Shown here: positions 14,661 to 47,939 of the stretch, piece after piece
Position numbering within the stretch: position 1 is the stretch's first letter
How the letters are laid out: every line of letters begins with the position of its first letter
Origin: Glycine soja
Lineage: Eukaryota; Streptophyta; Magnoliopsida; Fabales; Fabaceae
Assembly: GCF_004193775.1 (NCBI RefSeq)
Contig: NC_041004.1
Location: forward strand, 32,512,411 to 32,576,410
Direction: 5' to 3'
DNA: 64,000 bases
Notes under the pieces: generated by a model
What the model saw: the letters and a program-made list of their open reading frames with translations, nothing else
What the model was told of the DNA's origin: nothing
Database searches by the model: none
Program-made: the position numbers and the translations under genes

Positions 14661-14891
14661 TCTCCTTGACAGTGATGTGAGTCTTTCCAATTTTTTGTTT
14701 GCACTTTATTCGTGATTCTGTTTTTGTTCTTTGTCTTGGTCCTTGCTTGGCTGCACGCACGACATCGACGCTCATTTGTTTGCGTGTGCTCCTGGTTTGT
14801 TCCTGTAACTCTCTCATTCGTGGTTCGTGTTTCAGTTCCTGGTTCTTGTCCCCTTTTATTTTTTGGGCACGAGCTCTTGGCTTTTTTTTCC

Positions 14892-16594
14892 ATGACTATG
14901 GAGAATCTTTGTGTTCGTTTTAACGACAAGAACTATGCTGCTTGGGAGTTTCAGTTCAAGATGTTCATGAAAGGGAAAGGCATGTGGGGAAATGTCAATA
15001 GGTCCTCCTCTAAACCCACAACCATGGCTGAGTTGGCTGCTTGGGAGACGCAAGATGCCCAAATTATTTCTTGGCTTTTGGGGTCCATTGAGCCTTTAAT
15101 GGTCAATAACCTGCGATCATTTTCTACTGCCAAAGACATGTGGGACTATCTCAAACACATTTTCAATCAGGACCATTCTGCCAAACGCTTTCAATTGGAA
15201 TTGGACATAGCCAATTACAGTTAGGCTAATTTCTTTATTCAGGAATATTATTTTGGTTTCCTGAACTTATGGGTTGAACATTCTGCTATACTTTATGCTA
15301 TTGTTCCGAGAACTTCTTTGGTTGTTGTTCAAGAGGTTTATGAGGTCACTAAACGGGACCAATTCCTCATGAAGCTTAGACCTGAATTTGAAGTTGTACG
15401 TGCTGCTCTCTTAAATCGGCACCCACTTCCCTCTCTGGATGTATGTGTTGGCGAACTGCTTCGGGAAGAACAACATCTTCTCACTCAAGTAGCTCTATCG
15501 CATGACTCTTCTATTTCGAAAGCTATTGTTGTTGCCTATACTGCCCGGGATAATGGCAAAGGTCGTGATACATGACAAGTTCAATGTTATTCATGCAAGC
15601 AATTTGGTCATATTGCTCGCCATTGCACCATGAAGTTTTGCAACTATTGTAAGCAACATGGCCATATCATCATGGACTGTCCCACTAAACCACCACGGCT
15701 TCAGGTGCAAGCTTTTCATGTAGCTAATTCTATGAGTGAGACACCCACTTCTATCCCAACCAATGTTGATGCCTTAACTCTAGAGAAGGTGCAGCAAATG
15801 GTGCTTTCTGCATTATCTACCTTAGGCATCCAGGGTAAGTCTAATGATATATTTTCACCATGGTTTGTTGATTTTGGAGCCTCCAATCATATGACTGGTG
15901 CCTTGGAACATTTAAACAATATTCACACTTATAATGGCACTCAAAACATTCAGATTGCTGATGGTAATACTCTTTCAATCACGGCTGTTGGTGATATTAC
16001 TCCTTCCTTTCGTGATGTCTCTCCTAGACTTGTTTCTAATTTAATTTTGGTTGGACAATTGGTGGATAACAATTGCAATATTAATTTCTCTCGGGTTGGT
16101 TGTGTGTGCAGGATGACGTGTCGGGGAAGGTGATCGCGACGGGGCCTAAAGTGGGCAGATTATTTCCATTCTGGTTTACTCTACCTAGACTTTTGTCTTT
16201 TAATTATACTGGTGTCCCAAATAAGTATGAGGATTGGCACAAAAAGTCGGGTCACCCAAATTCAGTTGTTTTGTCTCATTTACTGAAAAATGGATTCTTA
16301 ATCAATAAAATTACCATTCCTGGTTCATCCTTTAACTGTCCTGTATGCAAACTTGTTAAAAGCAAAACCCTCCCATTTCCTTCTAATGCTCATTGTGCTG
16401 ACAAATGTTTCGACATTATTCATAGTGATGTTTGGGGTATATCGCCTATCTTATCACATGCCAAGTACAAGTATTTTGTGACATTTATTAATGATTATAG
16501 CCTCTTTACTTGGATATATTTTCTCTGTTCTAAAGATCAAGTTTTCTCCATGTTTAAGACATTTTATGGAAGCTCAATGTTCCACCTCGTGTGA
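14892..16594 (+). pseudogene. Copia gag-protease-integrase remnant
   Basis: Starting at ATG 14892, the frame gives a copia gag (WEFQFKMFMKGKGMWG, later RFQLELDIANYS), then a TAG at 15222. The frame resumes with FLMKLRPEFEVVRAALL (15366 on), a second stop near 15574 and two CCHC knuckles: CYSCKQFGHIARHC and CNYCKQHGHIIMDC (15588-15680). The protease motif is FVDFGASNHM (15864-15893), with G in place of the usual second residue of the DSGAS box. After a frameshift near 16110 come the GAG-pre-integrase block (WHKKSGHPNSVVLSHLL ... CPVCKLVKSK) and the integrase start (FDIIHSDVWGISP ... YFVTFINDYSLFTW). It breaks off near 16590. At least two nonsense changes and one frameshift make it inactive. 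Confidence 0.85.
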
Positions 16595-16811: not shown

Positions 16812-16841
16812 CTAGTCGGTAACCCGTGCGCATGCACGGGT
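16812..16841 (-). other. Helitron 3' terminus: hairpin plus CTAG
   Basis: Minus strand: GACCCGTGCATGCGCACGGG, then TTACCGACTAG, then host T. The stem CCCGTGC/GCACGGG is 7 bp with a short loop. Helitron transposases use this hairpin as the end signal of rolling-circle transfer. Confidence 0.9.
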
Positions 16842-17037
16842 CTTTTGTCTAAATGATTTTCGATGGAAGAATAATAAAAAAGACATTATAAAAAGATAAA
16901 AGAAGCAACATTCATATTAAATCGTTGTAATCTCAAATTGTTTGAAGATAAATATAAAGACGTGTGAAATAAACATAAACAAACATTGTTTTGCAAAATG
17001 ACACCATAGATTTTCCTGCTAATGTTTCATTTTCATG

Positions 17038-17135
17038 GATAATTAACAGCAAAATAAAAATATTGTTTGTTGCACCAGCAAGATAGCAAAATAAAAAAAT
17101 TGTTTGTTGCACCAGCAACATATTAACAGCAAAAT
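17038..17135. repeat. Two-copy tandem repeat, about 52 bp
   Basis: AACAGCAAAATAAAAATATT followed by GTTTGTTGCACCAGCAA is repeated with small changes, within the 3' non-coding end of the Helitron. Confidence 0.7.
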
Positions 17136-17147
17136 GATAAAGACAGC

Positions 17148-18535
17148 CTAGTCACTGTCATCATCTTCCCAATCCTCCTGCCTCCTGATTATGATATCCC
17201 AAATTTTTTCATAATACCTATAATAAATAGAGATTTCATCTCCATCATCAAAATCCATTTCTTCAAGAAAATCATACCATGGTTGGATAACACCTTTTCC
17301 ACCAATAGCAGGATTCAGCGTTTCAACTTTCCATTGCAGTGGGGGGCCATGCCGCCTTAAGACTGTCATGTGGTTGTCGCAAGCTCTAAGAGGAACTTCT
17401 GTACAATGGGGGAGTTTCTGTAATTTGGAAAAAGTTAAATTCTTAAAATGGTAAAAATGTGTTTAAAGAGATTAAGATATGAAAGTCAGCTTACCAGGGG
17501 TTCAGGATGATCCAGCATTTCCTGAGTAAGTTGAAGAGTCCATATGTGCTTCCTGGATGAATGCCTCTACCTGCCGCAAGTTTGCCGCTCCAGTGGTGGT
17601 ATGAAATGTATGTCAAAAACAGAGTGATGGCCACATGCAAAAAAGTTGATGTTGGTTGACTCATAGATTTTCAAATCTTTTCGGAAGTTTTGGAGTCCAT
17701 CTGCTAAATACACTTTGTCTCTGCGTTGTCTGACTCGTATTTCATAAATGGCTCCATTGTATCTGAGATGAACAAACTCAGGAAAGTTTGGTGCCCATTG
17801 AGTATGATAGAAGGCTGGAAATTGTATGGTATCCTGAAAAAAAAGTGGGAAATATAAATGCATGTATATGTAACAATAATAGTAATGGAAGAATTGAGAA
17901 AAAAGATGACCTTGTCATTGTTGAAGGCAGTGGTAAATTGCATGATCAGTGGTCGCCGCATGATGCCATTTTTCATCTGTAATCACAAGGATATAAAACC
18001 AAATGTCAAAAGAAACTTGTCAACCAAAGGAAAATTATAAAATGACAGGGATGCACAATATAAAGGTTTGTAAACAAAACACCAAAAAAGAAAAACAGCG
18101 GAAAGTACTAATGTACATATAAACCGAAACCAAATCAAAGGCAAAGACATTAAACGAAAAAACAGAACAACGACAACAATAGAACAAAACAAAAGTGGAA
18201 AACAAAAATTAAAATGATAGCCATGCACATAAAAGTTAGAAAAGAAATGACCAAGCCATGCACATAAAAGTTAGAAAAGAAACGACCAAGGAGGGCCGGA
18301 CACCTTCAAGTCCAGTTTTGTTTTCAAACTTGAAAAAGAAAGAAAGGAAAATGACACGACAAAAAACAACGGCATTGCACAAAACCCCTAAACCACGTGC
18401 ATCAGACACATAGCAGAAAAACTGCAAACCAAAAACCATGAAAATGAGAATAAACGCAACAAAAAGGTAGGTGTCGTGAAGAGAAGAGTAGAAATGATTT
18501 ACCTCAGTTGATGCGGTTGAAGATGTGGTGCTCAT
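17148..18535 (-). pseudogene. Helitron-borne B3-like two-domain protein gene, one premature stop
   Basis: Four exons on the minus strand join in one frame: 18535-18503 (MSTTSSTASTE), 17976-17911, 17833-17495 and 17417-17148. All junctions have GT donors (GTAAAT, GTCATC, GTAAGC) and pyrimidine-rich AG acceptors, all in phase 0. The product would be 235 residues. Residues 34-115 resemble a plant B3 DNA-binding fold: FVHLRYNGAIYEIRVRQRRD, then KVYLADGLQNFRKD and HHSVFDIHFIPP, matching the B3 pattern of a basic strand, a WxxF-like helix and FDV(H)IF. Residues about 150-230 look like a second, more diverged B3 domain (MTVLRRHGPPLQWKVE, PWYDFLEEMDFDDGDEISIY) with an acidic tail. A single in-frame TAG at 17569-17567 (codon 122) splits the two domains; the frame is otherwise open. 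The function in the Helitron is unknown; a DNA-binding or regulatory role is inference. Confidence 0.7.
18221..18291. repeat. 35-bp tandem duplication in the first intron of the B3-like gene
   Basis: CCATGCACATAAAAGTTAGA followed by AAAGAAAYGACCAAG occurs twice back to back, differing at one base. Confidence 0.8.
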
Positions 18536-18619
18536 TTTGTGTATGGCGTGAAAGTAGAGTTTGGACAGAGGAATGAAAAAGGATTTGCAGAAGAAAGTAG
18601 ATGATAGGCCTTTAGTGTG

Positions 18620-18640
18620 GTATTTAATATTTCCTTCTTT
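18620..18640 (-). promoter_or_regulatory. Possible TATA box of the B3-like gene
   Basis: Minus strand AATATTAAATACC lies about 95 bases upstream of the ATG at 18535, followed by a pyrimidine-rich leader (CTTTCTTCTGC, TTCATTCCTCTGTCC). Distance and composition suit a plant core promoter; this is position-based inference. Confidence 0.35.
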
Positions 18641-19311
18641 CCAATGCCACACGGTTGTGAATAAATGTGATATCAATAACTGTGAATTGAAGAGGTACGA
18701 AGTAGATGAAGAGTTTTTGTTCGAATTTGAAGCCTAAGACCGTTGGTATTGTAGGGCAGTAACTATCTAAATTTATCTTGGGCCAAGATATGAGCATTGG
18801 GCTAACTTCTAGAATTGCTTGTTAACATTTCATTTTTTATGTATTGTAGAGGGGGGTATGAACGAATTATTTAAAGGTGATTATGTCATCTTGCATAACT
18901 ACATTTTTTAAATGTAGTTTTTTTTATGTAAAATAAGAATGATGTTGGTTTGAAGGAATGCAGTATATGCTGCATGATGTGCTACATTTGGACGATTGGC
19001 ATGAATGATTTTTTAAAAATATTGTTTAAAGCATAATTATCATATAAGCAGTAACATATGAACGCTAGATATTTCATCATTGAACTTCAGCAATTAAAAT
19101 TTCTATATTTCGCAAAGAAATAAAGAAAATTTGTACATGTAAATGTCAAAGCAAATGTTAAGCTGTGATAAACTGCTAAATAATATAATGTTAAGTAAAT
19201 GAAATTATAAATGGAAGATATTAATGTGGTGATTAAGATTGCATACCTGACAATGTTAAATTTAACATTGTAATATATGATATCATCTTTGGTTGTATGT
19301 TAGAATGTATA

Positions 19312-22300
19312 TTAGTAAGATAACAGTTTGGAATTATTGCGGCTGCCTCTTGGAATGACTGGCAGGATCTGCCGGAAATCTCCACCAAAGACCATGACTT
19401 TACCTCCAAAGATTGTATTGTCCTTTGAGTTGTGTTTAATGATATCTCTAAGACTGTGATCAAGTGCCTCAAAACAGAATTTGTGAGCCATGGGTGCTTC
19501 ATCCCAAATGATTAGACTTGTCTGATTTAATAGCTCGGCTAATTGAGTTCCTTGATGGATATTGCAAGTTGAGTCTTCAAAAACTAGAACTGGAATTTTA
19601 AATTTTGAATGTGCAGTTCTACCTCCAGGCAATAGCAGAGAAGCTATGCCGCTAGAGGCCATCATTATTACAATTTTATTGTCAGCTCTTAGTGAACTTG
19701 CAAGTGTTTTCCAAATGTATGTTTTTCCTGTACCTCCATATCCATAGAGAAAAAACATACCACCTTCATCTTTATTAACAGCTTCAACAATCTGGTTGTA
19801 AATTGAAGCTTGTTCATCTGAAATCATCGATATGTGGTGTTAGATTTAAAGATAAATGAATGAAGTTAAAATACTAATTTATAGATGAGAAAAGCTAAGA
19901 AGGGAATGCACATAATAATTTTTAGAGGGGTAAATTGCTCTGTACTTAATGTACCTGTCATGTGAGAAAATAGATGTTCAAACTCTGATCTAAGTTCTTC
20001 ATTGTTGTAGTTCAGTTCAGCTAATATAAGGCTATTGTCTAAATAAGCTGGACAATTCACATCCTCTGGATATGGCATTGAAGGATAGTCTCTTAGCGAT
20101 CTTTGATTTGCTTGCAGCAGTTGTTCAATTTCAAGCAAGACCAAATTTTGAAGAGTTCTATCATCAAGCTGCAATGCTAATACACAAAAGAGAAAAAAGT
20201 CAAATTATGTGCCGTATCAATATTGATTTGTCTGATGGGAAATTAGCACAAACCTGGACTTGTTGATGATTTTTTATAATTATAGACAATGTCATCAGCC
20301 ATCCAATGCCAAGTTTGGTCCCAAACTTGTTCAGGTTTGCTCATTGTTGCAGATAAAAGTAACAACACAAATAGCTTTCTTATATAATGTGCTGAACCCC
20401 AATCTTTTGCTTCTTTGATTGCCTCAATAAATTCTTTATCATCTTGTAAAAATCCCATATCAAAACATGCTTCTTTATATGTAGAATACTGAACATTATC
20501 AACTGTTCTTAAATCCTCAAATGAGGTAGGTCCTTTACAAATGGAAAGCATCATTCTCAAATAAAATAATTCCCCTGTAATTGGTGGAACCCATAGTAAT
20601 CTGCCAATGGTATAGCCTTTCTTCCTAAGGTGCCAACATCTTTTCTTCTGATTGTATACAAACTTAGAAACAAATTCTGCATAAGTAAGATTTCTCCCTT
20701 CAACAGAATTTTGGTTGGTGTTCATCCATGAAATAAACTTTGAATCAGAGATACTTGGCCTAGACAATACATCATCAATATGATCATGGTCTTCATAGAG
20801 AACACTATGTTGGCCTGGAAGATGGAAGTGTAATCTTTCAACAGCAGGTTTTCTGCCATGTATTGGAAATCCAAAGATTCTCCAAGTAGATTCACAGGGA
20901 CATATGTATTTGTTAGGAAGATAGAATTAGTTGTTATAACAATGATGATCAGATAAATTAGAGATCAAGTTTTAAAAATATCTGCAATCTAGATATTCTT
21001 TGATCTCATCATTATGGGTGCCACCATTCTCAGTTTGATCGTTATCTTCATCAATCAAAACAACAGTCACCCTATCATATCCCTTGTTGATGTACTTAAA
21101 TAAATATTTGATAGAAGTGTTTTGGTTACACCATTCAATATTGATATGCGCTTGGTATTTTCTGAGCAATCTTGGATTGTAAGGTACAATATACATGTTA
21201 TCAACTATAACACCATTTTTCTCAATTGCATTACCGTTGTTTCTTCTACGATAGACTGGAAAACCATCAGCATCTAAAATAGTATGCAGCTGGAACATTT
21301 TAGGATAGAAACGACTACACTTGCCTTTTTTCATGCATGGAGATCCAGGATTCAGACTTCCACATGGACCATGAACCATATGGTTTTTTACTAATGAATA
21401 CAGTTCTGGATCATCTTGCTGTGAAGGTATCTCTGCCAATACAATTTGATCAATTTCATCTGAGGATGGGTATTTGTTATCAGGATGTAAAAAAAGCAAC
21501 AAATGGACATGAGGTAGGCCTCGTTTTTGAAATTCTATTGTATACATATCTGCAATTTATTAGTAAGTCTGTTAATAGAAAATAATTAAAGTTATTAGAT
21601 ATGATTGTGTGATTAATATTGGCAATGTAAAATAACAATGTCACACATAATATAAATTCAACAAACTTAGAATCAACTTACATGCAATAACTTTGCCTAG
21701 CATGTGATTCTTTGTCAGGTTCATAAGCATTTGTTCATACTTTAGTTTGAAGACTCTGGAGATTATGTCTGGCCTATCTGCTGCTTTCAGATTCAACGGA
21801 TTCAGCAATCTATGGATTTCGGGCCAGTTTGGATTGTAGGTTAAAGTAATAAAAAGATTTGGGAAGCCCACATGGCTACATATGGCCATACCATCAAAAT
21901 AAAGTTGATCCATATAGCGCGGACTGCCAACAAAAGTTGAAGGCAAAATGACTCTTTTACCTTTATTTAGGCCTCTCCTACTTCCATCATCCAATGACTA
22001 TAGTAAGCTACAAAACTTGTCAACTCGAAGTTTTTTTTTGTTGTTTCTGATGTAAGAAAGTCTTTCTGACTCAACCATAGTATAGCCATCAACAACAAAT
22101 TGTTGGAATAGTCTCCTAGAATTCAACAAAGTCATAGATTCATTTGATCTGCACTGTAGCCTATAAGAAAACCACTCCCTCATTGTAAGACGATTTCTTT
22201 TCCTTTTCTTACCATCTGATCGACTGCTATGTAGAATATCAGGTCTATATCCATTTTCCCCGTAAGGAAATAAGAGAGGGTATTGTAGAGGTAGATAGCT

Positions 22301-23841
22301 AGAATGTAATTCATGGATCCTTTGTAGTTGTCCATGCTGAGTTTCAAGAATAATATCTCTTTTTGAATTTGCATCAAAATCGCCTACTATTAGTGCTGCA
22401 ACTTCAGGAACAGTAGGTACATTATATGTACGACCATGTTTCTCACGATTAGCAATCAATTTCAACTTGATATTATTCACTTGAACATCTTGTAATCTAT
22501 CTCTGGCCATCCTGAAAGTTTTTGCATGCACGTTGTATTCATCTAGCATCTCACTAAGTTGTGAAACAATGTGTTCTTGAATTTGATTATGTGGACTGCT
22601 GACCAAAATAAACAATTATATATACGATGATTGGAAGATTAGTAATGCAGAATAAACAATTGAATCCTGTTTAAATGTAAGATTGTTGATCAATGTTATG
22701 CATTTATAATAATAATAATGAAAGACTAACTACCTTATTGCATTAATCCTATTATGCACTTCATTTTCTGTGTCAAAGATATACAATTGTGCAAATTTTG
22801 GTTCTTTCCCAGGCATCGGTAACATACTACCTATTCTATGACATGGTTGACCTTGAATTCTTATTGTAGGAGGTCCTCTTGAATGATTAATTGATTTGTC
22901 AAACTTAATACCAGCAGAAGTAAAGGCAAACATCATGTTATATGTCCTTATGTTCTGTTGGTAATTTTTACTATCAGATGTACCATGATCATACAAAAGT
23001 TGGTAGAGATATTTAGGTGGACTTTGTAACAATGGAAGTTCAACCTTGTCATTTCCACAACATAAACTGAATCTTGGATTTGTAGTTCTTTTATCTTTTG
23101 AGACTCTTTCATCATACCACATATTTGCATTACAGTGACTACACTGCATATGGCAAAGTGAAGTTGGTCATTGAAAATGTTTTAGGAAAACATGTAAATT
23201 GAAACACGATAAACAAAAGCAGTTTTGTAGAGTGAAAGATATTCGACAGCGAGCTAATAACATAGTGTTTATCAATATTAATTGTTACCTTCTCTATTAA
23301 TTGCGGGCTCATTTCTCAAGTGAAGAAACTGAAACACAGCCCATGAAAATTGCATTTAGATTAGATTATAGCATTATAATGTAGAAAATTAATTTGATAA
23401 AGTCTATTTTAATTGGTACCTTGTGTTGATTCAGAACTCTCATCCTCTGATGAATCACGAATATTGACTAAAAAAAGTGAATTGAATCTAAGTTTAGTGG
23501 AATTTATTTAATGTGGAATGGATTCACATAATATTGAATGTACCTTACAGTTTGCTTGTCCTTGTGTGAAAAAAATTATGGATATTGTATTACTAAATCA
23601 ACAAACTAATTAAAATTATTAACTGTAATTTGGAACATAATATTTTGAATTGCTTACAATCAATATTCTGAGCCAGATCATTAACTTTGTGCTGCCTAAT
23701 ACCTTTATTCTTTATCCTGGCTTGTGCCGTATCACGATGATTTGCATGCTCATGGTTATCCATGTTCTTGATGGTTGTTGTTAATCTTGACTGAGTTATA
23801 AAATTTTCGCTGACTTCTTGTTTTAATATATTACAATACAT
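19312..23841 (-). pseudogene. Helitron Rep/helicase gene, truncated after helicase motif III
   Basis: Minus-strand exons, in order: 23841-23593 (N-terminus, KNMDNHEHANHRDTAQARIK); 23149-22730 (zinc-finger block CSHCNANMW ... CCGNDK); 22615-21641 (Helitron-like N domain; IVGDFDANSKRDIILE, LQYPLLFPYGENGY); 21549-20972 (Rep core, HUH motif GLPHVHLLLFLHP, tyrosine motif YLFKYINKGYDR); about 20900-20243 (linker, KKRCWHLRKKGYTIGRL); 20174-19866; and 19827-19312 (SF1/PIF1 helicase, Walker A GYGGTGKT, Walker B IIWDEAPM, motif III GGDFRQILPV). The protein nicks DNA and unwinds it during rolling-circle transposition. An in-frame TAG near 21998 interrupts the link between N domain and Rep (CSLL*SLDDGSRRG). 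After RGSR at about 19345 similarity ends; motifs IV-VI are absent. Known plant copies continue for several hundred more residues, so the helicase cannot work. Confidence 0.9.
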
Positions 23842-25233
23842 GCAAAATTAAAATTGCAAAAGTCCATGGACATGCAGAAAAGGAATGTTATTCCACTCGA
23901 ACCAAGACATAACTTGACTTGTTGACTAAAATTATCAATGTTGACACCTTGTTAAATGGATCATACTTTGATAAAAATGATTAGACATGCATGTATAGCC
24001 ATGATTATAGTCATGGTTTTGACGGCCACATTAAAACTTGAAAAGTAAGTAATCAAAAGTAAGCATAAGGAAAAACACTAAAATTATGAATGCTGACAGC
24101 TAATTAAATGCACTAAATTGATTAGACTTGCATTTATAACCATTATTATACCTATGCTTTGGCACCATCGATAAGAAATATGATATCGAAAATGCTATGC
24201 ATGGCAGAATTAGGATGTCAAGCTAAAGAGAAATTGTTTTTTTACTTGTTTTATTAATTGTACATCATATTGAGACATATGATTAAAGATGGAGTAAATT
24301 TATCAAATATCCGATTCTGCATTTGCGAAAGCAAAATCAAGCAAAAAATGCTATCTAAATTAACAAATCATGCTAAATAATGATTGATAATAAAGAAACG
24401 CTTAATTACATATCATTGATGATCCAAGATCATGTTTCTCAATACTCCAAAGCTGATACTTTTGTCTTGGTGTGTATATTCTACTGTTAGAAAATTAATC
24501 AGATATGAATGTTGATTTAGTTGTGCTAGTGATCAATATTTCCTGATCATCATTTCTAACATTTTAATTTGTTTCCCGTGAATACTTTGTGCTCAGACAA
24601 TTAAGGATGCACAACATAAAATCAGATGAATTAATCATATATTAATGGTGATTTAGTTGTGCTACTGATCAATATTTCATGGTCATTATTTCTAATATTT
24701 TAATTTGTTTCCCATGAATACTTTCTGCTCAGACAATTAAAGATGCACACCTTAAAATCAGATGGCTTAATGGCCGGTTAAAACTTTAATTGAATTTTAA
24801 CTTATCATCATTGTGAAGAACATGTTTTCTGAACTTTCTGTCTGGCAATCTCTAATTTTTATTTTCAAATCTTACTTGTTCTATCTCTCACGATATATTT
24901 CAATTCATAACATTTGCATAGCTCGATTTCTTTAAAGATGGCTTTATAACCATTAATATAAGCATGGTCTGTCGATAGTTATTTTAACAATTGAACAAAT
25001 AAGGATTTTGAAATATAGTGCAATAGTTAAGGTGACATCGGATAAGCCACAGAACTAAAATGCCAGGATACTCGCATACAAACTAAGATTAAAATTTAAA
25101 CAAAAGTTCTGATCAGAGTTCAAAAGCAACACCACCACAACAGAAATAAGGTAGAAGCCAATGTACAATATACAAATACCAAGGGGGGGGGGAATTGTTC
25201 AACACAACTTGGAAACAACCAAATGCACTAAAT
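23842..25233. other. Spacer inside the Helitron with two tandem duplications
   Basis: Non-coding. A repeat with about 150-bp period covers roughly 23930-24175 (landmark GATTAGACWTGCATKTATARCC), and a 136-bp unit is duplicated at 24493-24628 and 24629-24764 (landmark GATTTAGTTGTGCTA). A run of nine G lies at 25183-25191. It separates the divergent blocks RPA-like and Rep/helicase and would be the place for the Rep promoter. Confidence 0.65.
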
Positions 25234-27664
25234 TCAGGCATGCTTTTTTAATTTGTTGGATGAAAGCTGCGCATATGAAATTTGAGAGATCCCTGGTTCA
25301 TCATCACAATCCTGAAATGCCTGCCGCTTTGTAGGTGTCAAGGGGAGTCCAAGCAGGGGATCATGATCTGGATTGCTAGATAAAACAAATGGCAATCAAT
25401 AAGTTGAATGCTAAGTTGAAAGTCATGAAGTGTCAAAATGCAAGAATTGCAAGAAAGATCATATTTAAAAATGAGAGCAGTCATCAAAACTCATATTCAT
25501 GTTGAGCAGAATGATTCGAATCAGAAACCGGGATATCCATTTTTGAAGATGTCTGAATAAGACATACATTGAAGATAACACAACCCATGGAAAACATATA
25601 AATATGAATAGAATACATACTTTTCACAATAGTTAATGTCAAATAACTTGCACTGAACATTACCTCAGCATCAGCTAGCATATCCATCACAACATTTATC
25701 AAGCTCGAGTCAGCTGAACACTTCAAAACAGCAGAATTCCTGAACTTGGGTTGCACATTTATCTTGAAAGCAAGTTCATGACCCAACAGCTTATCAAGTG
25801 CTTGGGGTGAAGCATTCAAATCAACATCATCATCCTTGTTCAAAGAGAATAATTGTATTACACAAACAAAAAATAACATATCAAACATAAACAGTTACAG
25901 TTGAATCCAAAAACACACTTCAATTTTAAGCTTATTAACTGCATCAGCTGATTGGCCAATTAATTCACTGCATTCACGGTCCCAAAGCAGGAATTTTGTG
26001 CTTTCATTTCCCTGGTTGATCATCACCTCAAGCCTATACCTGCCACCATATGCACCAATAGTCAAAAAATGATGAAGGCATAAAAAATACACAACATTTT
26101 AAAAGATCACAATCACCTAAGCACAACTTCCTTATTGTATTTGCCGCATGCACATGTAAAGGGCGCCATCTCTGCATCACTTTTTTATGGCACTGAATGC
26201 AAGCTGTATAACACCATGAATGATTGTCTAGAACAATCCTAGTAATTGTGCCAACAGTGACACAAACAATTTCCTGCATGAAACAGCATAGACATCAAAT
26301 AAAAAACTTCAGATAATGCACGACAAAGAATTAAAATCTATATAAGATCATTACTTCAGAGATGGTGTTAATCTCAGCAATAGTCTTTGCCTCAGCCTTG
26401 CCAAAGAATGATTCTTTTGATGATAATTGGATAAAACCTAAAAGTTGTGTACTCCCTTCACCATGGGATTTAAAAAATGACCGGGCCTCAATGCCCAACT
26501 CTGCAAGTCTACAAATATACAATGAACAACAAAAATAAGACAAAATATAATCAACATATATTACATAACACATACAAAAAATACCGTTCATTGAATTCTT
26601 GAATCTCCATCACAGGCTGGTTAATAATTAACTTTGAAGCCTTGAAAGAATTACTGATCGATGCAGGATAAGATCTTGAATCATTTTTAAAAACAGAACC
26701 ATAACATGCAATAGCATAAACAGAGAAATCAATAAATTCAAGATGAGGATATACCTTGCGCTTCCTTGATCCTACAATGACTTAATAGAACTGTAATTGG
26801 ACCATCACCTTCATAATCATCTAAGAACTTCACAAACTGCAAGCAATAATCATCCCACAAAGTGAAAGATAGCAATTGCTGGCTATCAAAAACAAATAGT
26901 TATGAAACAATCAGTTATTAATAATAATATAATCATAGCCACAACTTGACAAAGCATATCACATAAATTGTCACCAAGAATCGAACTTCACCTCAAGTCC
27001 TTTAATTTGAAAACTACCCTTCTACCTTTTCCTGAAACTTGCCGAAAACCTCCTCCACAACACCAATAACATCTAAAGCAAGTAGGAAAATCAAGGAATG
27101 TTATTTAATTCCAAAAACAACAGAACTTTCAAAATAAACTCAATTGCAAAAATATAACTTAACATACCAACCAATAGTCCACGTTCAAACTGGCCAACCA
27201 CAACATCTGCAAATCTAGCAAACCTGTATTTTCTAAAAGGGATGTCCCCTAGAACACACTCCCTCACAACAGTAACCCCAATAAACACTAATTTAAATTG
27301 ATGATCACACACTCTGTACTGACCATTGTTTTTTAGCACTTTAAAATTGTGCATGACATAAGTACAATTTTCTTTCAAGTCCATTTTTTTACTTCAATTG
27401 GTCTTGTTTACAAACAACGTGGATCTCATCACCCTGGATTGCATTAAGGTTACAACACAATGAACTGAACAATGAGTAATAAGTAATAAAGCTACAAAAA
27501 AAAAACACAGAATTGAAGCATACATCGGAGGCCACAAACACCATTTCAGCTTGCTCAGATTTGTTAGGCATGCCAATAAACCATAGATAACTGATCCTCA
27601 CACTGAGTTTAAGAGTTTCTTTTGAGCCATCGATGCTCTTTATCTTGTCTAGAGAACGTGCCAT
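25234..27664 (-). pseudogene. Helitron RPA-like (OB-fold single-strand DNA binding) gene, degraded
   Basis: The first exon (27664-27524) starts MARSLDKIKSIDGS and has a clean GT donor. The next (from 27433) encodes GDEIHVVCKQDQLK and then hits TAA; the frame reopens one base later as MDLKENCTYVMHNFKVLKN. Further exons carry the middle OB fold, the zinc-ribbon region (CYTACIQCHKK, then a frame change before the expected CxC) and the C-terminal OB fold (YRLEVMINQGNESTKFLLWD, CSELIGQSADAV, LLGHELAFKINVQPKFRN). The last codons (SSNKLKKHA) end at TGA 25234-25236. RPA-like proteins are standard companions of Rep/helicase in plant Helitrons and bind single-stranded DNA. At least three frameshifts or stops (near 27388, 27040 and 26180) make it a pseudogene. 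Confidence 0.85.
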
Positions 27665-28319
27665 AACACTGCAAAAAAATACAACAAAGCCACCATCAAA
27701 ACAGAAACACGATAAGCTAAACAAAAATCCAAAACCTCGTTCAACACACAAAAATGAGAAGCTAACATGCATGTAAGAAAACACACATGAAAACAGCACC
27801 AGAACAGAACATCAAAAGTACCACCAGCCCTAAACCAAACATGCAAACCAAACATCGTCCAACACAACAAAATTAAAAAATAACATGCATGCAACAAAAC
27901 AAACATAAAAACACCACAGAAACAAAAGCCAAAAACCCTGAAAGGTAATATGCATGTAAGAAAAGAAAAGCCAGAAAACCATAAGCTAACATCGAATATA
28001 ACAAAACATACATCAAAACAGCATCAAACAGAACCCAAATTAAACTGGTCTGTATCTGCAAAAATGAAAACCAAAAACGCGCAAACTGAAGAATGAAGAT
28101 TGAAATGCAAGAAACCACGTAAAGAAGCAAAGGCCAGCACATGTACAACATGCAAAATAAAACACATGTAAATGCCATAATCAGCAAAATTAAACACCTG
28201 TAAGCATCAAAAGAGTGGTAAATTAAGGGCTAAAAGACCAAAAAACCAACAAAATGGATAGTTGTCACAATCTTAAGCATGGGTATTTCAGTAATTTCCA
28301 GAGAATTCTCTTTTATAGA
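27665..28319 (-). other. Helitron 5' end and leader of the RPA-like gene
   Basis: No coding function. The plus-strand is rich in CAAAACA/AACCAAA runs, which on the minus strand produce long Phe/Cys/Leu-rich open frames of low complexity; I do not take these as genes. The element's 5' terminus is at 28319. Confidence 0.6.
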
Positions 28320-28399: not shown

Positions 28400-28722
28400 G
28401 TCATAGTCATATCTAAGACTAACTGCAGGAGCTTGTGTCTTAGTGTGTCAAGGTATCATATCCGCTTTGGCTGTAATATATATGTTATCTCCTTGGGGCT
28501 ACATAATGTGCATTTTGAGATGGATTGTAAGGTCATTATTGATATATAAAAAAAACAAACAAATTTAGATGTTTATGATAGTTAGGTAACATTCTTGATG
28601 AATGCCAAAGTTTTATCCCATAATCATGGCTTTAGCCCTGGTTATGTGAGGAGAAAAATTGATATTGTTGCTCATTCTCTTGATAGAGTGGCCCCATATA
28701 TTTATTACTGTGTATTGATAAA
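28400..28722 (+). pseudogene. RNase H (RVT_3 type) fragment
   Basis: Plus-strand frames give VHFEMDCKVIID near 28510, then NILDECQSFIPYNHGFSP and RRKIDIVAHSLDRVA (28640-28700). This order matches the plant RVT_3 ribonuclease H domain found in LINE-derived sequences (E-DCK-V-D ... FVRR-AN-VAH-LA-A). Stops and a frameshift interrupt it. Only this domain is present. Confidence 0.65.
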
Positions 28723-30939: not shown

Positions 30940-31087
30940 ACTAATAAATAGACACGGAAGGAAACTCAAAAAACCACCCAAAAAAATTCAAAAAACACAA
31001 ACAACAACCTTTGACACAACATAGTGGAGCAAGAAGAATCGAAGTTGTTTGGTTTCTGTTTTTTTTTTTTTCTTTTTCTCCTATGTA
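30940..31087 (+). promoter_or_regulatory. Core promoter and leader of the MORN gene (inferred)
   Basis: AATAAATAGACACGG at 30943-30957 is a reasonable TATA region, followed by an A/C-rich leader and a pyrimidine tract (31060-31080) typical of plant 5' UTRs. C-rich and CT-rich blocks (30836-30890) lie just upstream. No experimental start is known. Confidence 0.35.
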
Positions 31088-34000
31088 ATGCATCAGAAGA
31101 AATCCGAAGTCCAGATCGGAAAAGAAAGCAGTGGCGTCTCTTCCGATTTCAACCACCACCCACTCCCAATCCTAACTCCGAACCCAAACCAAGATGCTCT
31201 CCAATCACTAACCTCCACCGCACCCTACAAAAGACCTTCCCTCACCACCCAACCCCATCTTTCCAAATCCCCAACCCTCCACAAATTCCCAACCCTAAAA
31301 CCACGCCACGTCACCACCACCACCGCCGCCGCCACCACCACCGTTCTCTCCCTCCTCCGCCGCCGCCTCCGCCACCGTCTCCGCCTCTTCCTCTTCCTCT
31401 TGCTCCCCTTCTTCTACTTCCTCGTCTCCCACCCCACAAACTCCTTCCTCCTCGATTTCCTCTCCGCCTTCTCCTTCTCCGCCGCGCTCTTGTTCTCTCT
31501 CAACCTCGCCCTCCCTCGAATCCCCTCCCTCCGCCTCTTCCTCAACCTCAAGCCCAAGGCTAGGTCCGGCCTCAAACTCCCAATCTTCTGGACCGTGGGA
31601 GCCCGCCCAGGCCCGGCCCAGGCCCAACCCCAGCCCGCGGGCCTTCGCTTATCCGTGGTGCCCTACGCGAACGGCGACGTGTACGAGGGGGAGCTGAAGG
31701 GAGGGAAGTGTTGTGGGAGTGGGGTTTACTATTACAGTATGAGTGGAAGGTATGAGGGGGATTGGGTGGATGGGAAGTACGATGGGTTCGGGGTGGAGAC
31801 GTGGGCCCGGGGGAGCCGGTACCGAGGGCAGTACCGGCAAGGGTTACGGCACGGGTTCGGGGTGTACCGGTTCTACACCGGGGATGTTTATGCCGGGGAG
31901 TGGCTGAGTGGACAGAGTCATGGGTGTGGGGTTCACACGTGCGATGATGGGAGCAGGTATGTCGGGGAGTTCAAGTGGGGCGTTAAGCATGGCCTTGGAC
32001 ACTACCATTTTAGGTATGGATTGCGGGAGGTTTGTGTTTAATTGAAGTGATAGAAATTTTGTGTTTGAATGTTTTTATTTTATTTTAAAAGTAAGTTGGT
32101 AGTAAAATTCGATATAATTTTTTTTGTAATCTAATTATGTAATAGTTAGGTAAGGTTGTTTTAATTCACAATCAATTCTGGACTCAGAATTGATTTGCCA
32201 GTGTGAAACTGAACATGTGAATATTTACTTAAGATTGGGTTAGTTGGTGTTTCGATGTGATTCTGGATTATCTTACTTGAATCCAAACATGTCTGAAATC
32301 AGTTGGTTTGTAGTAGTTGATGGCTGTTTGTTGGCTTGGATTTGTTGGAAGTTGATTTTGGTGTTATTGATTGGTGTTTGATTGGGATTTGGATGTGAAT
32401 TGGTGGTGGGTGTGTTTTTTATTTGGTTTGTTGTGTGTGTGTGAATGTTTTGTGAGGTGTTTTTGGAATGGTGTTGGTGCTTGGTTTAGTTTTGTGGTTT
32501 CTTAGGTTTGTGGATTATGGCAATATCCTACTTCTTGAATGATATTTAGCTGCTTGTGTGTGCGTGTTTGGTGGCGGGGGTGCTTTGTTGTTTAGGGTTT
32601 GAGAATTGAGGATGATGTTATGTTATGGAGGCTTTTGTAGTATGTAATTATAAAGTGATTGGATGTTTGTTTTGCTTTGATTTGTTGTGTGTATGTGTGA
32701 AGCTTTTGTGAGTTAGTTTGGCAGGATGTTGGGGCTTGATTTGGTTCTGTACTTTGTCATCAGTTTTGTAGGTTTGCCTCAATTTCTTCATTCAATAACC
32801 TTTTACTGCTCTCTGTCCGTGTGGGTTGTGTTAGGGCATATAATCTTGAATGTTGGAATGCCATTCATTTCTATTCAGTTTTTACGGTTGAAAGCATGTG
32901 CATAGGGGATAAAGATACACAAGAGCTTGATTTGCTTCAGTTGTCAATTGTTAGTTGTGACTTATGCGTTGTGTGCGTGTGGTTATGAACTTATGATTTT
33001 GTTGATTGGTCTTTGGTGTTTAGCAATCAAGCATGGTTTTGTTGGTGTTGATTTTTATTTTGTTTGTTGTGATTGCGTGCATGTTTTGGTTTTGTTTGTT
33101 TTGCATGTATGAAAGTTTTATAAGATGACTTTGGCAGGTTGTTGGTGCTTGATTTGGTTTTGTGCTTTGCCTTTGGCTTGACAATTTCTTCCTTCTGGAA
33201 TAGTGTATGTTGCTCTAGCTGTCCATGTGTGTGTAGGTCTTGCTTTGTTGTTGACATGTTGCTTGGCTATTGGTGTTTAGTGTATGACAATTGAGAATGG
33301 TGTGATGGCGGCTTTTTTATTGGATGTAAACTGATTGCTTCCCTGTTTTGTTTTGTTTTGATTTGTTGTGTGTAAAGCTTTTGTGAGTTACTTTGGCTGG
33401 ATGTTGGGGCTTGATTTGGTTATGTACTTTGTCGTTAGTTTTGTAGATTTGCTGCAACTTCTAAGTGTAACCTTTTGCTGCTCTTGTGGGTTGTGTTAGG
33501 TTTTATTTTATTATCTTAAAAGTTAGAATACCAGTCATTTCTTACAGTTGAAACCATGTGCATAGAGGATAAAGATATAGAACATGTCTTTGATTTAATT
33601 TGCTTCAGTTGTGGCTTCTGTTTTGTCAAAAGTACCTGTAGGCCTTTGAAATTTTACTTGGCTTGGGTCGTGTATCAGTTGTGTGTACCTATTGGTAACA
33701 ATTGTTGGGCATAATATGTCATGTACTTATTGCAAAGCCATTGTTTTGAGATTTTTGAGGATGTTCATTTTTACTGTATCTTTAGCTTTTCCAGGAAGGA
33801 AGTAAGATTTAAATAGACTGAATACCCGTAACATACTATTCTAATGGTAGTTTGTTTTACCTACATTGGCATTTGTCTGCCAACTGACTAGCTGTGTGAA
33901 AGCTAATAAATGGGATTTTAATATTGAAATCAAAGAAAAGATGCAGTAAGCATGAAATCTCATAATGAAGTTGGTCAAATTGCTTTGAATAAATGGTCTG

Positions 34001-36684
34001 AGACTGATGCTCTTGGTTCAAACCCTGATGGGACCTCATATGGGGAATTAAGAAGAAAGGAAGAGGCAGCAAGAAAGGAAATGCCACTTCTTTGTGGAAG
34101 TATACTACTATTATATGAAAAGCCACATTCATTTGTGGTGTCTGATTACTAATTTAATACAAAACATCAGTCTGAAAACCTTTCCTTCTTATTGTACTAC
34201 ATTTTAAGTTTTGAAATGGTAAATGTCTAGTGAATAGCAAGTATAAGTTTATAAGTTTGTAGGGAGAGAGGCAAGCATACTTCTTACCCTGATCATGATT
34301 TAAACACACCCGCCATAGCAATCATTTCGAACATGTTTGGATCAGTAAAACCCAAAGGGAATGGAAGGGGTAAAGATTGTAGAATTATCAATGGCAGTAT
34401 GAAATAGGATTGATGGATATCACATAAAGGGACCCTTTCCATCAGAGTAAAAGGAAAAAGGAGGTGATGGAAGTATTTTATGATATTATTGTATTTGCTT
34501 TTGAGGTGCTCTCTTTATTTATAGTACTGGTTGATGAGAATGAGTTCATTTTCATTATCTGGGTGAACAAATTTTTATGTCCTTCTATGGAAGAAAGACC
34601 AATACAAGAGGAGAGTAGAAAACCATTTTGAGGGAATACATTATTTACTTGTTATTTTATATTTCTTTTGTGATTCATTTGAATAAAAGATCAAATAGTT
34701 ATCTATAAAAACCCCTAATACATTATTTATGTTTCATAAATTTCAAGTTGGTGAATCTTGACACAAATTAAGGGTTTGTGGATTTTTGTTTATTATGAAT
34801 ACATGAGACAACAAATATAATTACTAAAATGCAGTAAAAACTGAAAGATTAAAAGTGTAAACTTGCATATGACCCCTATTTGTATGTATTCATGTTCTTA
34901 GGACTTATCTTCATTATTGCTAATTTCAGTTTACAAGGGAAAGAGTATCTGCTCCCAAGGATAGACTCTGTTTTGAAGGTGCTTTATACCTCTCAAACTT
35001 TAAAACAATAGGTTATTCCATAATAATAACACAACACATGTTCTGAAGGGACACATAATCTCGAGTTCCTTGCAAGGAGCTAATTCCACAAGTTGGCCTT
35101 TGTTAAGCATCTACAATCTACACTGATTCCTTCTGTTTTTTCATTTCAAAATGGAATGTGCTGTCTTGGGCGTGCATTTTATGAAAATCGGTGCTTAATC
35201 CTATGATGCATGAATACATTTTTCTGATTTTTTCTTGAATGTGGGTTCCTCTCTTCTCAGGATCATTGGTGCATTATTTTTTAATTGAATTACACTGGAC
35301 TTTGAGTGGCTGCTTTTTCTTTGCTCACCAGTAAGTGTTTTTATTTTTGTTGGAACTAATTATTTCTGTTTTTATCAGAAATGGCGATACATATGCTGGC
35401 GAATACTTTGCGGATAAGATGCATGGATTTGGGGTATACAGTTTTGCTAATGGCCATCGTTATGAAGGATCCTGGCATGAAGGCAAAAGGCAAGGTCTTG
35501 GAATGTATACATTTAGAAATGGAGAAACCCAGTCTGGTCACTGGCAAAATGGAGTCCTTGACATTCCAAGCACACAGAGTACCACCTATCCTGTTTCCCC
35601 TGTTGGGGTCAATCATTCCAGAGTACTTAATGCAGTCCAGGTACACTCTACATTTTATGATTTAGTTTACCTTAATATATTGCTTAATATTATTTCTCAA
35701 TGTATCATTAAAGAACAAAGAAGTCGGCATAGAATAGTCTGGGTGATATTTATGTCAATGGCATAATGATGTGCCAATTTTTTCTGAGCAAATTGTTTTA
35801 CCCTCTCTTGAGAGAGATGCTTAAATGACACTCCCCTCTCTTAATCGGGGAATACAAGTTGCATCGAAATAATTTTCAATATAAACAAACCTCTTAAACA
35901 ATTGTAAACAATTATTAAACAAGAGAAAGAAAAGAACTCTAGAAAGTTCATTTACATTAAAATAGACTCAAATGTAACTTATATCCATCTTTCAAGGAGG
36001 AGTGCATAATTTAAGCATTTCTCAAAGTGAGAAAATTGTACATTCTCTCTTTTGATGTAAAATGTGATATACTTTAGTTACATGCTTTATTGTAATTTTT
36101 TATTTCTGAATCTACTAATTTTTTATATTGGTTTCCTTGCTCTATGTTTCTTGGTTTCCTATCACTGCATCTTAACAATTGTTTCACTAATTCCAAGTAA
36201 AAAATAGTATTACTACACCCCTAGAAATAAATAGCCAGAATTCTCACAGATTTTAGCTAGATTCAAGAGTTGTTGGATAAGATAATACTAACAGTCCCTC
36301 ATTTATCCAATAGTCAATAAGTTTGCCATTCATTTTGTCAAAAATTCTCTCTGCCTACAATTTTCCATATTATTGAACATTTACTTCTATACGTGTAAAA
36401 TTAGCTCATTTGTGTAGAAGAAGAGACAAAATCAACTGCAAACAGTTATGTTTGCATCATTAGGAGCTTTCATTATTAGTGATGTGTTTCCTTGTAAAAA
36501 ACAGGAAGCAAGAAGAGCAGCTGAGAAAGCCTATGATGTGGCCAAGGTAGATGAGAGGGTTAATAGAGCAGTAGCTGCCGCTAACAGAGCAGCCAATGCA
36601 GCTAGAGTAGCTGCTGTCAAGGCCGTGCAAAACCAAATGCTTCATAATGTTAACAGCACGAGCATCCCAATTCCCATTGTGTGA
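31088..36684 (+). CDS. MORN-repeat membrane protein (three exons, 455 aa)
   Basis: Exons 31088-32013, 35379-35640 and 36505-36684 join in frame (GT/AG at each junction; the AG|A split codon at the first) and end at TGA. I chose ATG 31088 because MHQKKSEVQIGKESSGVSSD follows, which fits the N-terminus I know from plant homologues; an in-frame ATG 39 bases earlier adds a Phe-rich stretch encoded by the leader. Residues 1-95 are basic and Pro/Ser/Thr-rich; two hydrophobic segments (about 99-114 and 119-142) suggest a membrane hairpin. Seven MORN repeats follow from residue 198 (YEGELKGGKCCGSG, YEGDWVDGKYDGFG, YRGQYRQGLRHGFG, and so on), then an Ala-rich helix encoded by exon 3. Such proteins are often labelled SET7/9 family, but only the MORN part is shared; no SET domain is present. 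Membrane association and lipid or protein scaffolding are inferred. Confidence 0.92.
32014..35378 (+). other. Large first intron of the MORN gene (3.4 kb)
   Basis: T/G-rich sequence typical of a plant intron, bounded by AG|GTATGG and TATCAG|A. Diverged blocks are repeated within it: a block with TTTGATTTGTTGTGTGTA, GTGAAGCTTTTGTGAGTTA and GGATGTTGGGGCTTGATTTG appears at about 32680 and again at 33355. Related text occurs near 33060-33160. Open frames in it are by-products of composition. Confidence 0.85.
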
Positions 36685-43081: not shown

Positions 43082-45241
43082 TTATTTATCCAAATCACTA
43101 ACATCTAAGAGGCCTAATTCTTTTCTAATGGCAAAGAATGTTTCCTTGGGGAGAGGTTTTGTAAAGATATCAGCAAGCTGATTCTTTGTATCAACAAATT
43201 CTAGCACACAATCTCCCTTCAGAACATGATCTCTTAGAAAATGGTGCCTAATTTCTATATGCTTGGTTCTAGAATGTTGAACTGGATTTTTGGAAAGATT
43301 AATTGCACTTGTATTATCACACCTAATAAGTATATAGTCAAGAAGGATTCCATAGTCAGAGAGTTGTTGCTTCATCCATAAAATATGTGCACAACAATTG
43401 CCGGCAGAAATATATTCCGCTTCTGTAGTGGATAAAGCAACACTATTTTGTTTCTTACTATGCCAAGACACTAGAGCTGATCCAATGAATTGACAAGTTC
43501 CACTTGTGCTCTTTCTATCTGTTTTGGAACTGGCAAAGTCTGAATTAGAGTATCCTATTAAGGTACGTGTGGAATTCCTAGGATACCATAAACCTATATT
43601 CATAGTGCCTAACAAATATCTTATGATTCTTTTAACGACACTAAGATGTGACTGTTTGGGATTTGATTGAAATCTAGCACACATACACACACTAAACATT
43701 ATATCAAGTCTGCTAGCAGATAAATAAAGAAGGGATTCGATCATACCTCGATATTGCTTAACATCTATTGACTGACCGGTTTCATCTTTATCTAAATAGC
43801 AAGCAGTGCTCATTGGTGTAGTCATGTGCTTAGCATTTTCCATCCCGAATCTGTGAATTAACTCTTTGCAGTACTTGGATTGATTGACAAAAATTCCAGT
43901 CTTGGTTTGTTTAATTTGTAATCCAAGAAAGAAATTAAGTTCTCCCATCATTGACATTTCAAACTCACTTTGCATGTCATGAGAGAATTCCTTGCACAAT
44001 AATTCATTAGTAGATCCAAAAATAATATCATCAACATAAATTTGAACCAATAAAATATCATATAATTTTCTCTTTATGAAAAGAGTAGTATCTACTTTGC
44101 CTCTAGAGAAATCCTTTTCTAAAAGGAACTTACTCAGACGCTCATACCAAGCCCTAGGGGCTTGCTTTAAGACATATAAAGCCTTTTTTAATCTAAAAAC
44201 ATGATTAGGCTTGTCTAAGTTTTCAAATCCAGGGGGTTGATCTACATATACTTCCTCTTGAATAAAGCCATTTAAGAATGCACTTTTTACATCTATTTGA
44301 TAAAGCTTAAAGTCCATTATGGATGCATAGGCTAATAACATTCTGATGGCTTCTAATCTAACAACTGGAGCATATGTTTCCTCATAATCTATCCCCTCTT
44401 CTTGATTATATCCTTTGGCGACTAATCTAGCCTTATTTCTAATAACTATGTCATTTTCATCTAATTTATTTCTAAACACCCATTTTGTTCCAATGATTGG
44501 GTAGTTTTCAGGTTTCTCAACTAACTCCCAAACATTATTTATTTCAAATTGGTTTAGTTCTTCTTGCATAGCTATTATCCAATTTTCATCTATTATGGCT
44601 TCATTTAAATTTTTAGGTTCAATCGTAGATACAAAAACCATGTTATTGCATAAATCTTTGAGAGAGTGTCTAGTTATTACCCCTTTTGAGATATCACCAA
44701 TAATGTTGTCAAGGGGATGATCTCTTGAAGCTTTCCACTCTCTTGGAAGATCATTATTTGCTTTGACTTCTACTGGAGAATCTTCATTGCTTCCTTCTCC
44801 TTTTCCTTTAGAATCTTGTCCATCAATATGCATTTGTTCTAAAGATTCTGCAATATCATCTAAAATATCCTTTCTTGGAGAAATAACATTAGACTCATCA
44901 AAGGAAACATGAATCGATTCTCCAATTGTCATTGTTCTCTTATTATATATTCTATAAGCTTTACTATGCAAGGAATAACCAAGGAAAATTCCTTCATCTG
45001 ACTTAGCATCAAACTTTCCTAAGTTTTCTTTTCCATTGTTTAATACAAAACACTCGCAACCAAAAACATGAAGATGCAAGATGTTTGGTTTCCTAACATT
45101 GAACAGTTCATATGGAGTTTTCTTTAAAATGGGTCTTATTAAAGCCCTATTCATGATATAGCATGCAGTATTAACGACTTCAGCCCAAAAATATTTTGGA
45201 AGAAGAGTATCATTTAATAAGGTTCTAGCAATTTCTTTCAA
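43082..45241 (-). CDS. Copia pol: end of integrase, reverse transcriptase and RNase H (719 codons open)
   Basis: A single open frame. Residues 1-130 are the end of the integrase ([49 protein letters not shown]). RT follows from about residue 245 ([40 protein letters not shown], and the catalytic YVDDIIFGS). RNase H is C-terminal ([29 protein letters not shown], the terminal [10 protein letters not shown]). No stop interrupts it, although the upstream integrase frame is shifted, so it cannot be made as part of the normal polyprotein. The first Met is not a real start. One change visible to me is [13 protein letters not shown] where family members usually have [10 protein letters not shown]. 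Confidence 0.93.
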
Positions 45242-46149
45242 AGACCTATTTTTCCTTTCAACAACTCCATTTTGTTGAGGGGTTCTAGGTGCAGAAAAGT
45301 TATGTTCAATGTCATGCTTATCACAAAATAAATCAAATTATTTATTTTCAAAATCACCCCATGATCACTCCTAATAGATATAATTTTGAGATTTTTCTTA
45401 TTTTGAATAACTTTTGCAAGTTTCCTAAATGCTTGAAATGCATCATTCTTATGAGTGATAAATAGTGTCCAAGTATATCTAGAATAATCATCAACAATGA
45501 CAAGTGCATAATAGCTTCCACCAAAACTCATAATTCTAGAAGGATCAAACAAATCCATATGTAACAATTGTAACGGTTGAGTAGTTGAAACAATGTTTTT
45601 GGATTTGAATGAAATTCTAGTTTGTTTTCCCTTTTGGCATGCATCACACAGTCTATCTTTTTCAAATTTTAGTTTAAGTAAACCAACAACTAAATCTTTT
45701 GAAATTAATTTATTTAAGTGTTCCATGTTTATGTGAGCAATATGTTTATGCCATAGCCATGGATCATCATCTTTGCTAAGAAAACATTGATTATTATCTA
45801 GTTTTTGACTTAAGTCTATCATATAAACATTGTTGATTCTATATATGCTTTATATTAGTATCATGTTTATGTTCAATGAGACATTTTTTAGAATCAAATG
45901 ATACTAGATAGCATTTATCACATAATTGACTAACACTAAGAAGTTGTGCTTAAGGCCTTCAACAAGTAGAACATTTTCAATGGAGTTTGAAGAATTCGTA
46001 CCTATTTTTCCAACTCCAAGAATTCTACCTTTATTGTTATCACCATAAGTTACATGCCCACTTTTCTTGGGAGAGATATGTGTGAACTTTGATGCATCTC
46101 CGGTCATATGTTTTGAGCACCCGTTATCTATGTACCACTTTTTCCTCAA
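45238..46149 (-). pseudogene. Copia protease and integrase region, frameshifted
   Basis: The protease block (46149-45904) reads WYIDNGCSKHMTGD, with N-G in place of the D-S-G usually seen at the active site, then a stop. The integrase (45822-45238) has WLWHKHIAHINMEHLNKLIS, the zinc-binding CDACQKGKQTR, and the core with LLHMDLFDPSRIMSFGG, YALVIVDDYSRYTW and SIRSDHG. Frameshifts near 45900-45830 and 45350-45240 separate it from protease and RT. Asp residues of the core (MDLF and RSDHG) are present; the Glu falls in the shifted part. Confidence 0.88.
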
Positions 46150-46163
46150 TGGTTCCTACAAGA

Positions 46164-47817: not shown

Positions 47818-47939
47818 GGAGAAGATGAGTCTAGAAGAAGCTCACCACCATAGGAGGCCATGGATAAGAGCTTGGAGGAAGAAGGAGATGAATGAAGGGA
47901 GAGGAAGAGAAGAGCACGAAATTTTGTGCTCTAAATGAG

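What the first reader, a model, noticed from the sequence alone, without database searches (positions are those of the whole stretch)
17148..18535. A B3-like DNA-binding gene travels inside a Helitron, in the place of the helicase C-terminus
Four phase-0 exons make a 235-residue protein with two B3-like domains. It lies between the truncated helicase and the 3' hairpin, is in the same orientation, and has its own TATA-like box and a short Ser/Thr start. Known plant Helitron accessory genes are RPA, OTU and some captured fragments; I do not know of a B3 gene as standard cargo. Apart from one stop codon the frame is clean, while RPA and Rep/helicase have several breaks, which suggests later arrival or selection on the frame. 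A B3 factor could bind the element's own ends or a host promoter. Function and capture are inference.
Basis: partly seen in the sequence, partly recalled or inferred. Interest (0 to 1): 0.88.

Follow-up and report, generated by a model that had tools for sequence, protein, structure and literature searches.

The report
Soybean Helitron with a B3 gene
A rolling-circle jumping element (a Helitron), likely from soybean, carries beside its usual replication genes an extra gene whose protein is predicted to fold as two plant-type B3 DNA-binding domains; relatives of this gene are joined to the same replication genes in database gene models, so it is likely a long-kept helper that would let the element control itself.

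Summary
Four phase-0 exons (minus strand, 18535-17148) encode 235 residues with one in-frame TAG. In a clean homologue (54% identical) both halves are predicted to have the B3 fold. The gene lies in an 11,508-bp Helitron-like element with TC and CTAG ends, a 3' hairpin and A|T flanks; the gene order is RPA, Rep/helicase, B3.

It is not a one-off capture. I found 179 related protein clusters; every listed one that shows an organism is Glycine. In 27 of 179, database gene models join B3 exons to RPA or helicase exons. This occurs in each of the five largest subfamilies (weakly in the fifth), down to about 35% identity. Helicase and B3 divergence run in parallel (r = 0.92). Some relatives keep helicase sequence beyond this copy's truncation, then B3. 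So B3 looks like a resident third gene, not a replacement for the helicase end.

This copy is a mosaic: its helicase matches one subfamily and its B3 another.

CATGCA, the best-known B3 target word, is about five times denser inside the element than outside. I propose, untested, that the protein binds its own element. No soybean DNA beyond the window could be searched.

The parts
16812..28319 (-). Helitron-like element, 11,508 bp, gene order RPA, Rep/helicase, B3
   Evidence: TC start, CTAG end, 3' hairpin, A|T flanks; no second copy or empty site could be searched
28300..28319 (-). 5' terminus TCTATAAAAGAGAATTCTCT, preceded by A
   Evidence: position chosen by eye, only match in the window
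27665..28319 (-). 5' leader with 8 CATGCA words, some in diverged repeats
25243..27664 (-). RPA-like gene (exons not resolved)
   Evidence: tblastn of P0113, P0137, P0143, P0165, P0114; DUF223 in P0113 and P0143
19312..23763 (-). Rep/helicase gene: one in-frame stop in 22615-21681; PIF1 domain cut after profile position 163 of 223
19297..19332 (-). likely mosaic junction: A-type helicase up to 19333, B-type from 19296
   Evidence: the B side rests on one 18-residue match (P0003, E 1.5e-4); the strict bound is 18617-19332
18503..18535 (-). B3 gene exon 1
17911..17976 (-). B3 gene exon 2
17495..17833 (-). B3 gene exon 3: rest of B3 domain 1, in-frame TAG at 17569-17567, start of domain 2
17148..17417 (-). 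B3 gene exon 4: most of B3 domain 2
   Evidence: fold and profile on homologues
18219..18288 (-). 35-bp tandem repeat in intron 1, one CATGCA in each unit
16822..16841 (-). 3' hairpin, 8-bp stem, with the reverse complement of CATGCA across stem and loop
   Evidence: z = -4.5
16812..16815 (-). 3' terminus CTAG, followed by T

Best explanation
The gene at 18535-17148 is the third gene (RPA, Rep/helicase, B3) of a Helitron-like element; its protein is predicted to fold as two B3 domains, it is likely a long-resident accessory gene of Helitrons in Glycine, and it would act by binding the element's own DNA to control its expression, silencing or end recognition. Shown by calls: the gene structure, B3 similarity, a large family, gene models that join B3 exons to RPA or helicase exons in each of the five largest subfamilies (weakly in the fifth), parallel helicase and B3 divergence, and the mosaic nature of this copy. 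Inferred: that the joined models each reflect one element; that the protein binds DNA; that its targets include the CATGCA words in the leader, introns and 3' hairpin; and that binding counters silencing or regulates transcription, as VANC proteins do for VANDAL transposons. This copy has a stop in B3, a stop in Rep and no helicase C-terminus, so it is most likely dead or non-autonomous.
For: B3 fold of both halves of P0027. 27 of 179 family members joined to RPA or helicase, in each of the five largest subfamilies. Helicase and B3 identities correlate across 10 joined models, r = 0.92, p = 0.0002. Same exon-3 end in several subfamilies. CATGCA 2.61 per kb inside and 0.51 outside; 0 of 300 simulations reach the count. 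Precedent: TE-encoded VANC proteins bind short motifs arrayed in non-coding parts of their own element (PMC5735166, PMC10398659, passages).
Against: The link to Helitron genes rests on gene models, not on element DNA; the same locus in several assemblies may be counted more than once; in the fifth subfamily it rests on one match of E 1.9e-4. CATGCA was examined after it was seen in the hairpin and repeats; repeats inflate it; under an order-2 model 6 of 1000 simulations reach the leader count; no Helitron without B3 served as control. The closest folds to domain 1 (At1g16640, VRN1) are not of the group that shares the RY site (recalled). Window domain 2 is acidic (pI 4.9), which does not favour DNA binding. 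Profile A1 matches 1yel only at E 0.092. The Pfam B3 match of domain 2 is below its curated cut-off, though PF02362 is precomputed for seven listed homologues.
Confidence: 0.5

Rival explanations
1. Passenger: one Helitron ancestor captured a whole B3 (REM-like) gene, and the lineage has carried it without use to the element.
For: Helitrons capture host sequence often (PMC6431247, passages). This copy's B3 has a stop.
Against: Clean two-domain frames exist in several diverged subfamilies, with a shared exon-3 end, and B3 diverges in step with the helicase; capture of full-length genes is called exceptionally rare.
Confidence: 0.3
2. Host-directed factor: the B3 protein acts on host promoters to the element's benefit, not on the element.
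For: B3 proteins are plant transcription factors (recalled; PMC8136769, passages).
Against: CATGCA is concentrated inside the element.
Confidence: 0.1
3. This copy is not one element: remains of two Helitrons of different subfamilies, joined by deletion or nesting, with only the B-type part carrying B3. The family-level reading stays.
For: Helicase and B3 of the window belong to different subfamilies, with a sharp change near 19,300.
Against: Single 5' and 3' ends with A|T flanks, and no helicase remainder elsewhere in the window at E 1e-2; a mosaic made in transposition, such as terminator bypass, explains it too.
Confidence: 0.4
4. Ordinary host B3 gene that lies by chance beside Helitron debris.
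For: Domain 1 resembles At1g16640.
Against: 179 homologue clusters, 27 joined to Helitron genes.
Confidence: 0.03

Closest known systems
Plant Helitrons with RPA and Rep/Hel, e.g. maize ZmhelA1 and ZmhelB2 (PMC3288121, passages)
   Same: TC and CTAG ends, hairpin, Rep/helicase and an RPA-like gene
   Different: A complete two-domain B3 gene after the helicase; not named among added domains in the passages read
Helitrons with captured gene fragments (PMC6431247, passages)
   Same: Extra gene inside the ends
   Different: Whole gene with intact relatives, recurring and diverging with the helicase instead of a one-off fragment
B3 (REM-type) plant factors: At1g16640, VRN1
   Same: B3 fold, best structural matches of domain 1
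   Different: Low identity (9-14% over the aligned structure); gene is transposon-linked; DNA binding unknown
VANC anti-silencing proteins of VANDAL transposons (PMC5735166, PMC10398659, passages)
   Same: Accessory protein of a plant transposon; a candidate short word is concentrated in the same element, partly in repeats
   Different: Other transposon class; no binding or methylation evidence; homology with VANC not tested
Pfam DUF7271 (PF23935)
   Same: Window protein and most homologues match it
   Different: No function had been given; here it is part of B3 domain 1 plus the linker

Membership tests
Helitron | 5' TC, 3' CTAG and a hairpin near the 3' end | tested here: met
Helitron | Rep (HUH) and PIF1-like helicase | tested here: met
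   Helitron_like_N in two pieces, one below its cut-off, and PIF1 E 1.5e-73; helicase truncated, one stop in Rep
Helitron | Insertion between A and T without target duplication | tested here: inconclusive
   A and T flank the ends; no empty site available
Helitron | Mobile as a unit, more than one copy with the same ends | not tested
   The genome search did not complete
B3 superfamily | B3 fold | tested here: met
B3 superfamily | DNA binding | not testable with these tools
   No experiment
DUF7271 (PF23935) | Profile score above the curated cut-off | tested here: met
   115.4 bits against 27
RY-binding B3 group (ABI3/FUS3/LEC2/VAL1) | Recognition of CATGCA | tested here: inconclusive
   The word is enriched in the element; binding residues not compared
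VANC-like anti-silencing factors | Short target motif dense in non-coding parts of its own element | tested here: inconclusive
   20 of 30 CATGCA lie outside my approximate exon list; that it is the target is assumed
VANC-like anti-silencing factors | Causes loss of DNA methylation at the element | not testable with these tools
   Needs plants

The most novel reading that the evidence does not exclude
A lineage of soybean Helitrons has long run as a three-gene transposon: RPA, Rep/helicase and a self-targeting double-B3 factor. The factor reads arrays of CATGCA in the element's leader and introns and across its 3' hairpin, keeping the element out of silencing or marking its ends; it co-diversifies with the helicase and can be swapped between subfamilies.
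Probability: 0.2. Interest if true: 0.9.

Novelty: new variant of a known kind. Interest (0 to 1): 0.68.

Why it matters
A complete B3 gene as a resident Helitron gene would extend the short list of Helitron accessory proteins and give a plant DNA-binding factor to a transposon class whose regulation is poorly understood. It gives Pfam DUF7271 an identity (part of the first B3 domain of a Helitron-linked protein) and warns that soybean 'hypothetical proteins' of this family can be Helitron genes or joins of them. If the protein binds its own element, it would be a second example, with another fold and transposon class, of the VANC strategy.

Tried and rejected
Host gene beside debris: rejected, because the family is large and joined to Helitron genes. 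B3 as a replacement of the helicase end: rejected, because relatives have helicase sequence beyond this copy's cut and then B3. Cleaner B3 frame as a sign of late arrival: rejected; stop rates are similar, and some Rep/helicase breaks coincide with places where gene models of relatives splice. Nested insertion with the helicase resuming beyond 16811: no further helicase piece in the window at E 1e-2 with the homologues held. Relatives in viral contigs: none confirmed. Rfam on the window: no match. dN/dS: impossible without DNA of relatives. First structure model: good first domain, weak second; the second alignment gave both. In one search, P0173 was dropped (54 residues of B3 overlap, under my limit of 60), leaving 10 of 11 helicase-block models. 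One search found its exon-3 pattern in 88 of 179 proteins: 30 scored as donor read-through (P0047 and P0138 look doubtful), 58 as spliced or other. The protein searches scored 107, 7979 and 7947 candidates (the last two near a limit); of 150 matches, 120 were listed. The absence of other genera may be bias: soybean annotations that keep transposon genes may be over-represented, and clusters from ena, jgi and lgn show no organism. I did not classify the unnamed ones.

Full report
What is there. On the minus strand, four exons (18535-18503, 17976-17911, 17833-17495, 17417-17148) with GT/AG borders and phase 0 give 235 residues with one TAG at 17569-17567. The gene stands between the PIF1 helicase piece 19839-19312 and a 3' hairpin at 16822-16841 (8-bp stem, -10.3 kcal/mol, z = -4.5), 10 nt from a CTAG end at 16812. 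On the far side, past Rep and an RPA-like gene, a TC end lies at 28319. The flanking bases are A and T. These are features given for canonical Helitrons in PMC6591975 (passages). The whole is 11,508 bp. That it moved as a unit is not shown. The organism is not given; Glycine is inferred from the best relatives.

It is a family tied to Helitrons. Three protein searches gave 26, 103 and 150 matches (120 of the last listed), 179 distinct clusters in all; every listed one that shows an organism is Glycine max or G. soja. Of the 179, tblastn against the window shows 23 with matches outside the B3 exons; two (P0081, P0140) match only near 47.7 kb, and 21 match the element's RPA (9, three of them weakly, E 2.7e-5 to 1.9e-4) or Rep/helicase (12). 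Six more are joined to such genes by Pfam or BLAST: P0055, P0100, P0119, P0134, P0140 and P0161. That makes 27 of 179. At 70% single linkage the 180 sequences (window included) form 17 clusters: 74, 44, 26, 16, 5, 3, 2 and ten singletons. Each of the five largest and one singleton holds linked models; in the fifth the only one, P0126, rests on E 1.9e-4. The most distant subfamilies are 33-37% identical to P0027. These are annotated gene models: they show closeness on one strand, not membership in one element, and some may be one locus in several assemblies.

The helicase is not replaced. P0146 is 92% identical to the window helicase up to 19333, covers the PIF1 domain to profile position 221 of 223 (the window stops at 163), and then reaches B3 exons. 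P0100 and P0119 carry the PIF1 2B domain above its curated cut-off, P0055 below it, followed by B3 exons (sequences). So the usual order is helicase, then B3, and this copy lost the helicase end.

Parallel divergence, and one mosaic. For 10 of the 11 models that hold the same helicase block, helicase identity and B3 identity rise and fall together (Mantel r = 0.92, p = 0.0002; not all models are independent). Adding the window lowers r to 0.63. Its helicase is 93-96% identical to the A group, whose B3 is 53-57% identical to its own; its B3 is 82-92% identical to the B group, whose helicase is 66-68% identical to its own. The last A-type match ends at 19333. A B-type match at 19296-19243 rests on 18 residues of P0003 (89%, E 1.5e-4); the next B-type matches start at 18616. 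Replication past a terminator into a downstream Helitron is a proposed route to such products (PMC6431247, passages); a deletion between two old elements is the rival.

Upkeep. The end of exon 3 falls at the same residue in several subfamilies, with the donor apparently read through in 30 of 88 proteins that hold the motif (two doubtful), and clean two-domain frames exist in several subfamilies. This suggests, but does not prove, selection.

How it may work. The element is rich in CATGCA, the recalled core of the Sph/RY site that the B3 domains of ABI3, FUS3, LEC2 and VAL1 share (PMC8136769, passages; the letters do not occur in that text). There are 30 in 11.5 kb against 27 in the other 52.5 kb; 13.3 or 14.5 are expected under order-1 or order-2 models, and 0 of 300 simulations each reach 30. 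The 5' leader has 8 (0 of 1000 order-1, 6 of 1000 order-2 simulations reach it) against at most 3 in 1024 overlapping outside windows. Of the 30, 20 lie outside my approximate exon list; one lies across the hairpin stem and loop, and two in a tandem repeat in the B3 gene's first intron. Two other recalled B3 sites are not enriched. CATGCA ranked fifth among 6-mers by excess. I looked at it after seeing it in the hairpin and repeats, and repeats inflate the count. VANC proteins bind short motifs arrayed in non-coding parts of their own transposon and remove silencing (PMC5735166, PMC10398659, passages); this parallel is the reason for my preferred mechanism. Binding is untested, and the window's domain 2 is acidic (pI 4.9).

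Known or new. Nine searches of the open library bore on B3, DUF7271, soybean, capture or accessory genes in Helitrons, and one on VANC. From the titles and abstract starts listed, none points to a B3 gene as a Helitron gene, and DUF7271 is in no held paper; subscription papers are mostly missing from this library. Passages in PMC3288121 name RPA, and those in PMC6431247 name RPA, OTU and AP-EN, as added domains; the latter calls capture of full-length genes exceptionally rare. SoyTEdb lists 82 soybean Helitrons, with no gene content in the passages read (PMC2830986). I rate it a new variant of a known kind.

Noticed in passing
14676-16594: Copia-like gag and integrase remnant (by eye) beside the element's 3' end.
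   Followed up: no
43082-47195, minus strand: Larger copia-like polyprotein remnant with long open frames (by eye).
   Followed up: no
28440-28720: Text like a LINE RNase H (by eye) beside the element's 5' end.
   Followed up: no
31025-35766: Gene with MORN-like repeats (by eye), about 2.7 kb from the 5' end; probably the nearest host gene.
   Followed up: no
24493-24764: 136-bp tandem repeat, two copies, 90% identical, inside the element.
   Followed up: no
19250-19275: Palindrome-like stretch next to the mosaic junction (pair I4).
   Followed up: no
P0104: A soybean gene model that appears to join B3 genes of two different subfamilies head to tail, suggesting nested or tandem elements.
   Followed up: no
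47687-48667: The tails of P0081 and P0140 match here; unrelated to B3.
   Followed up: partly
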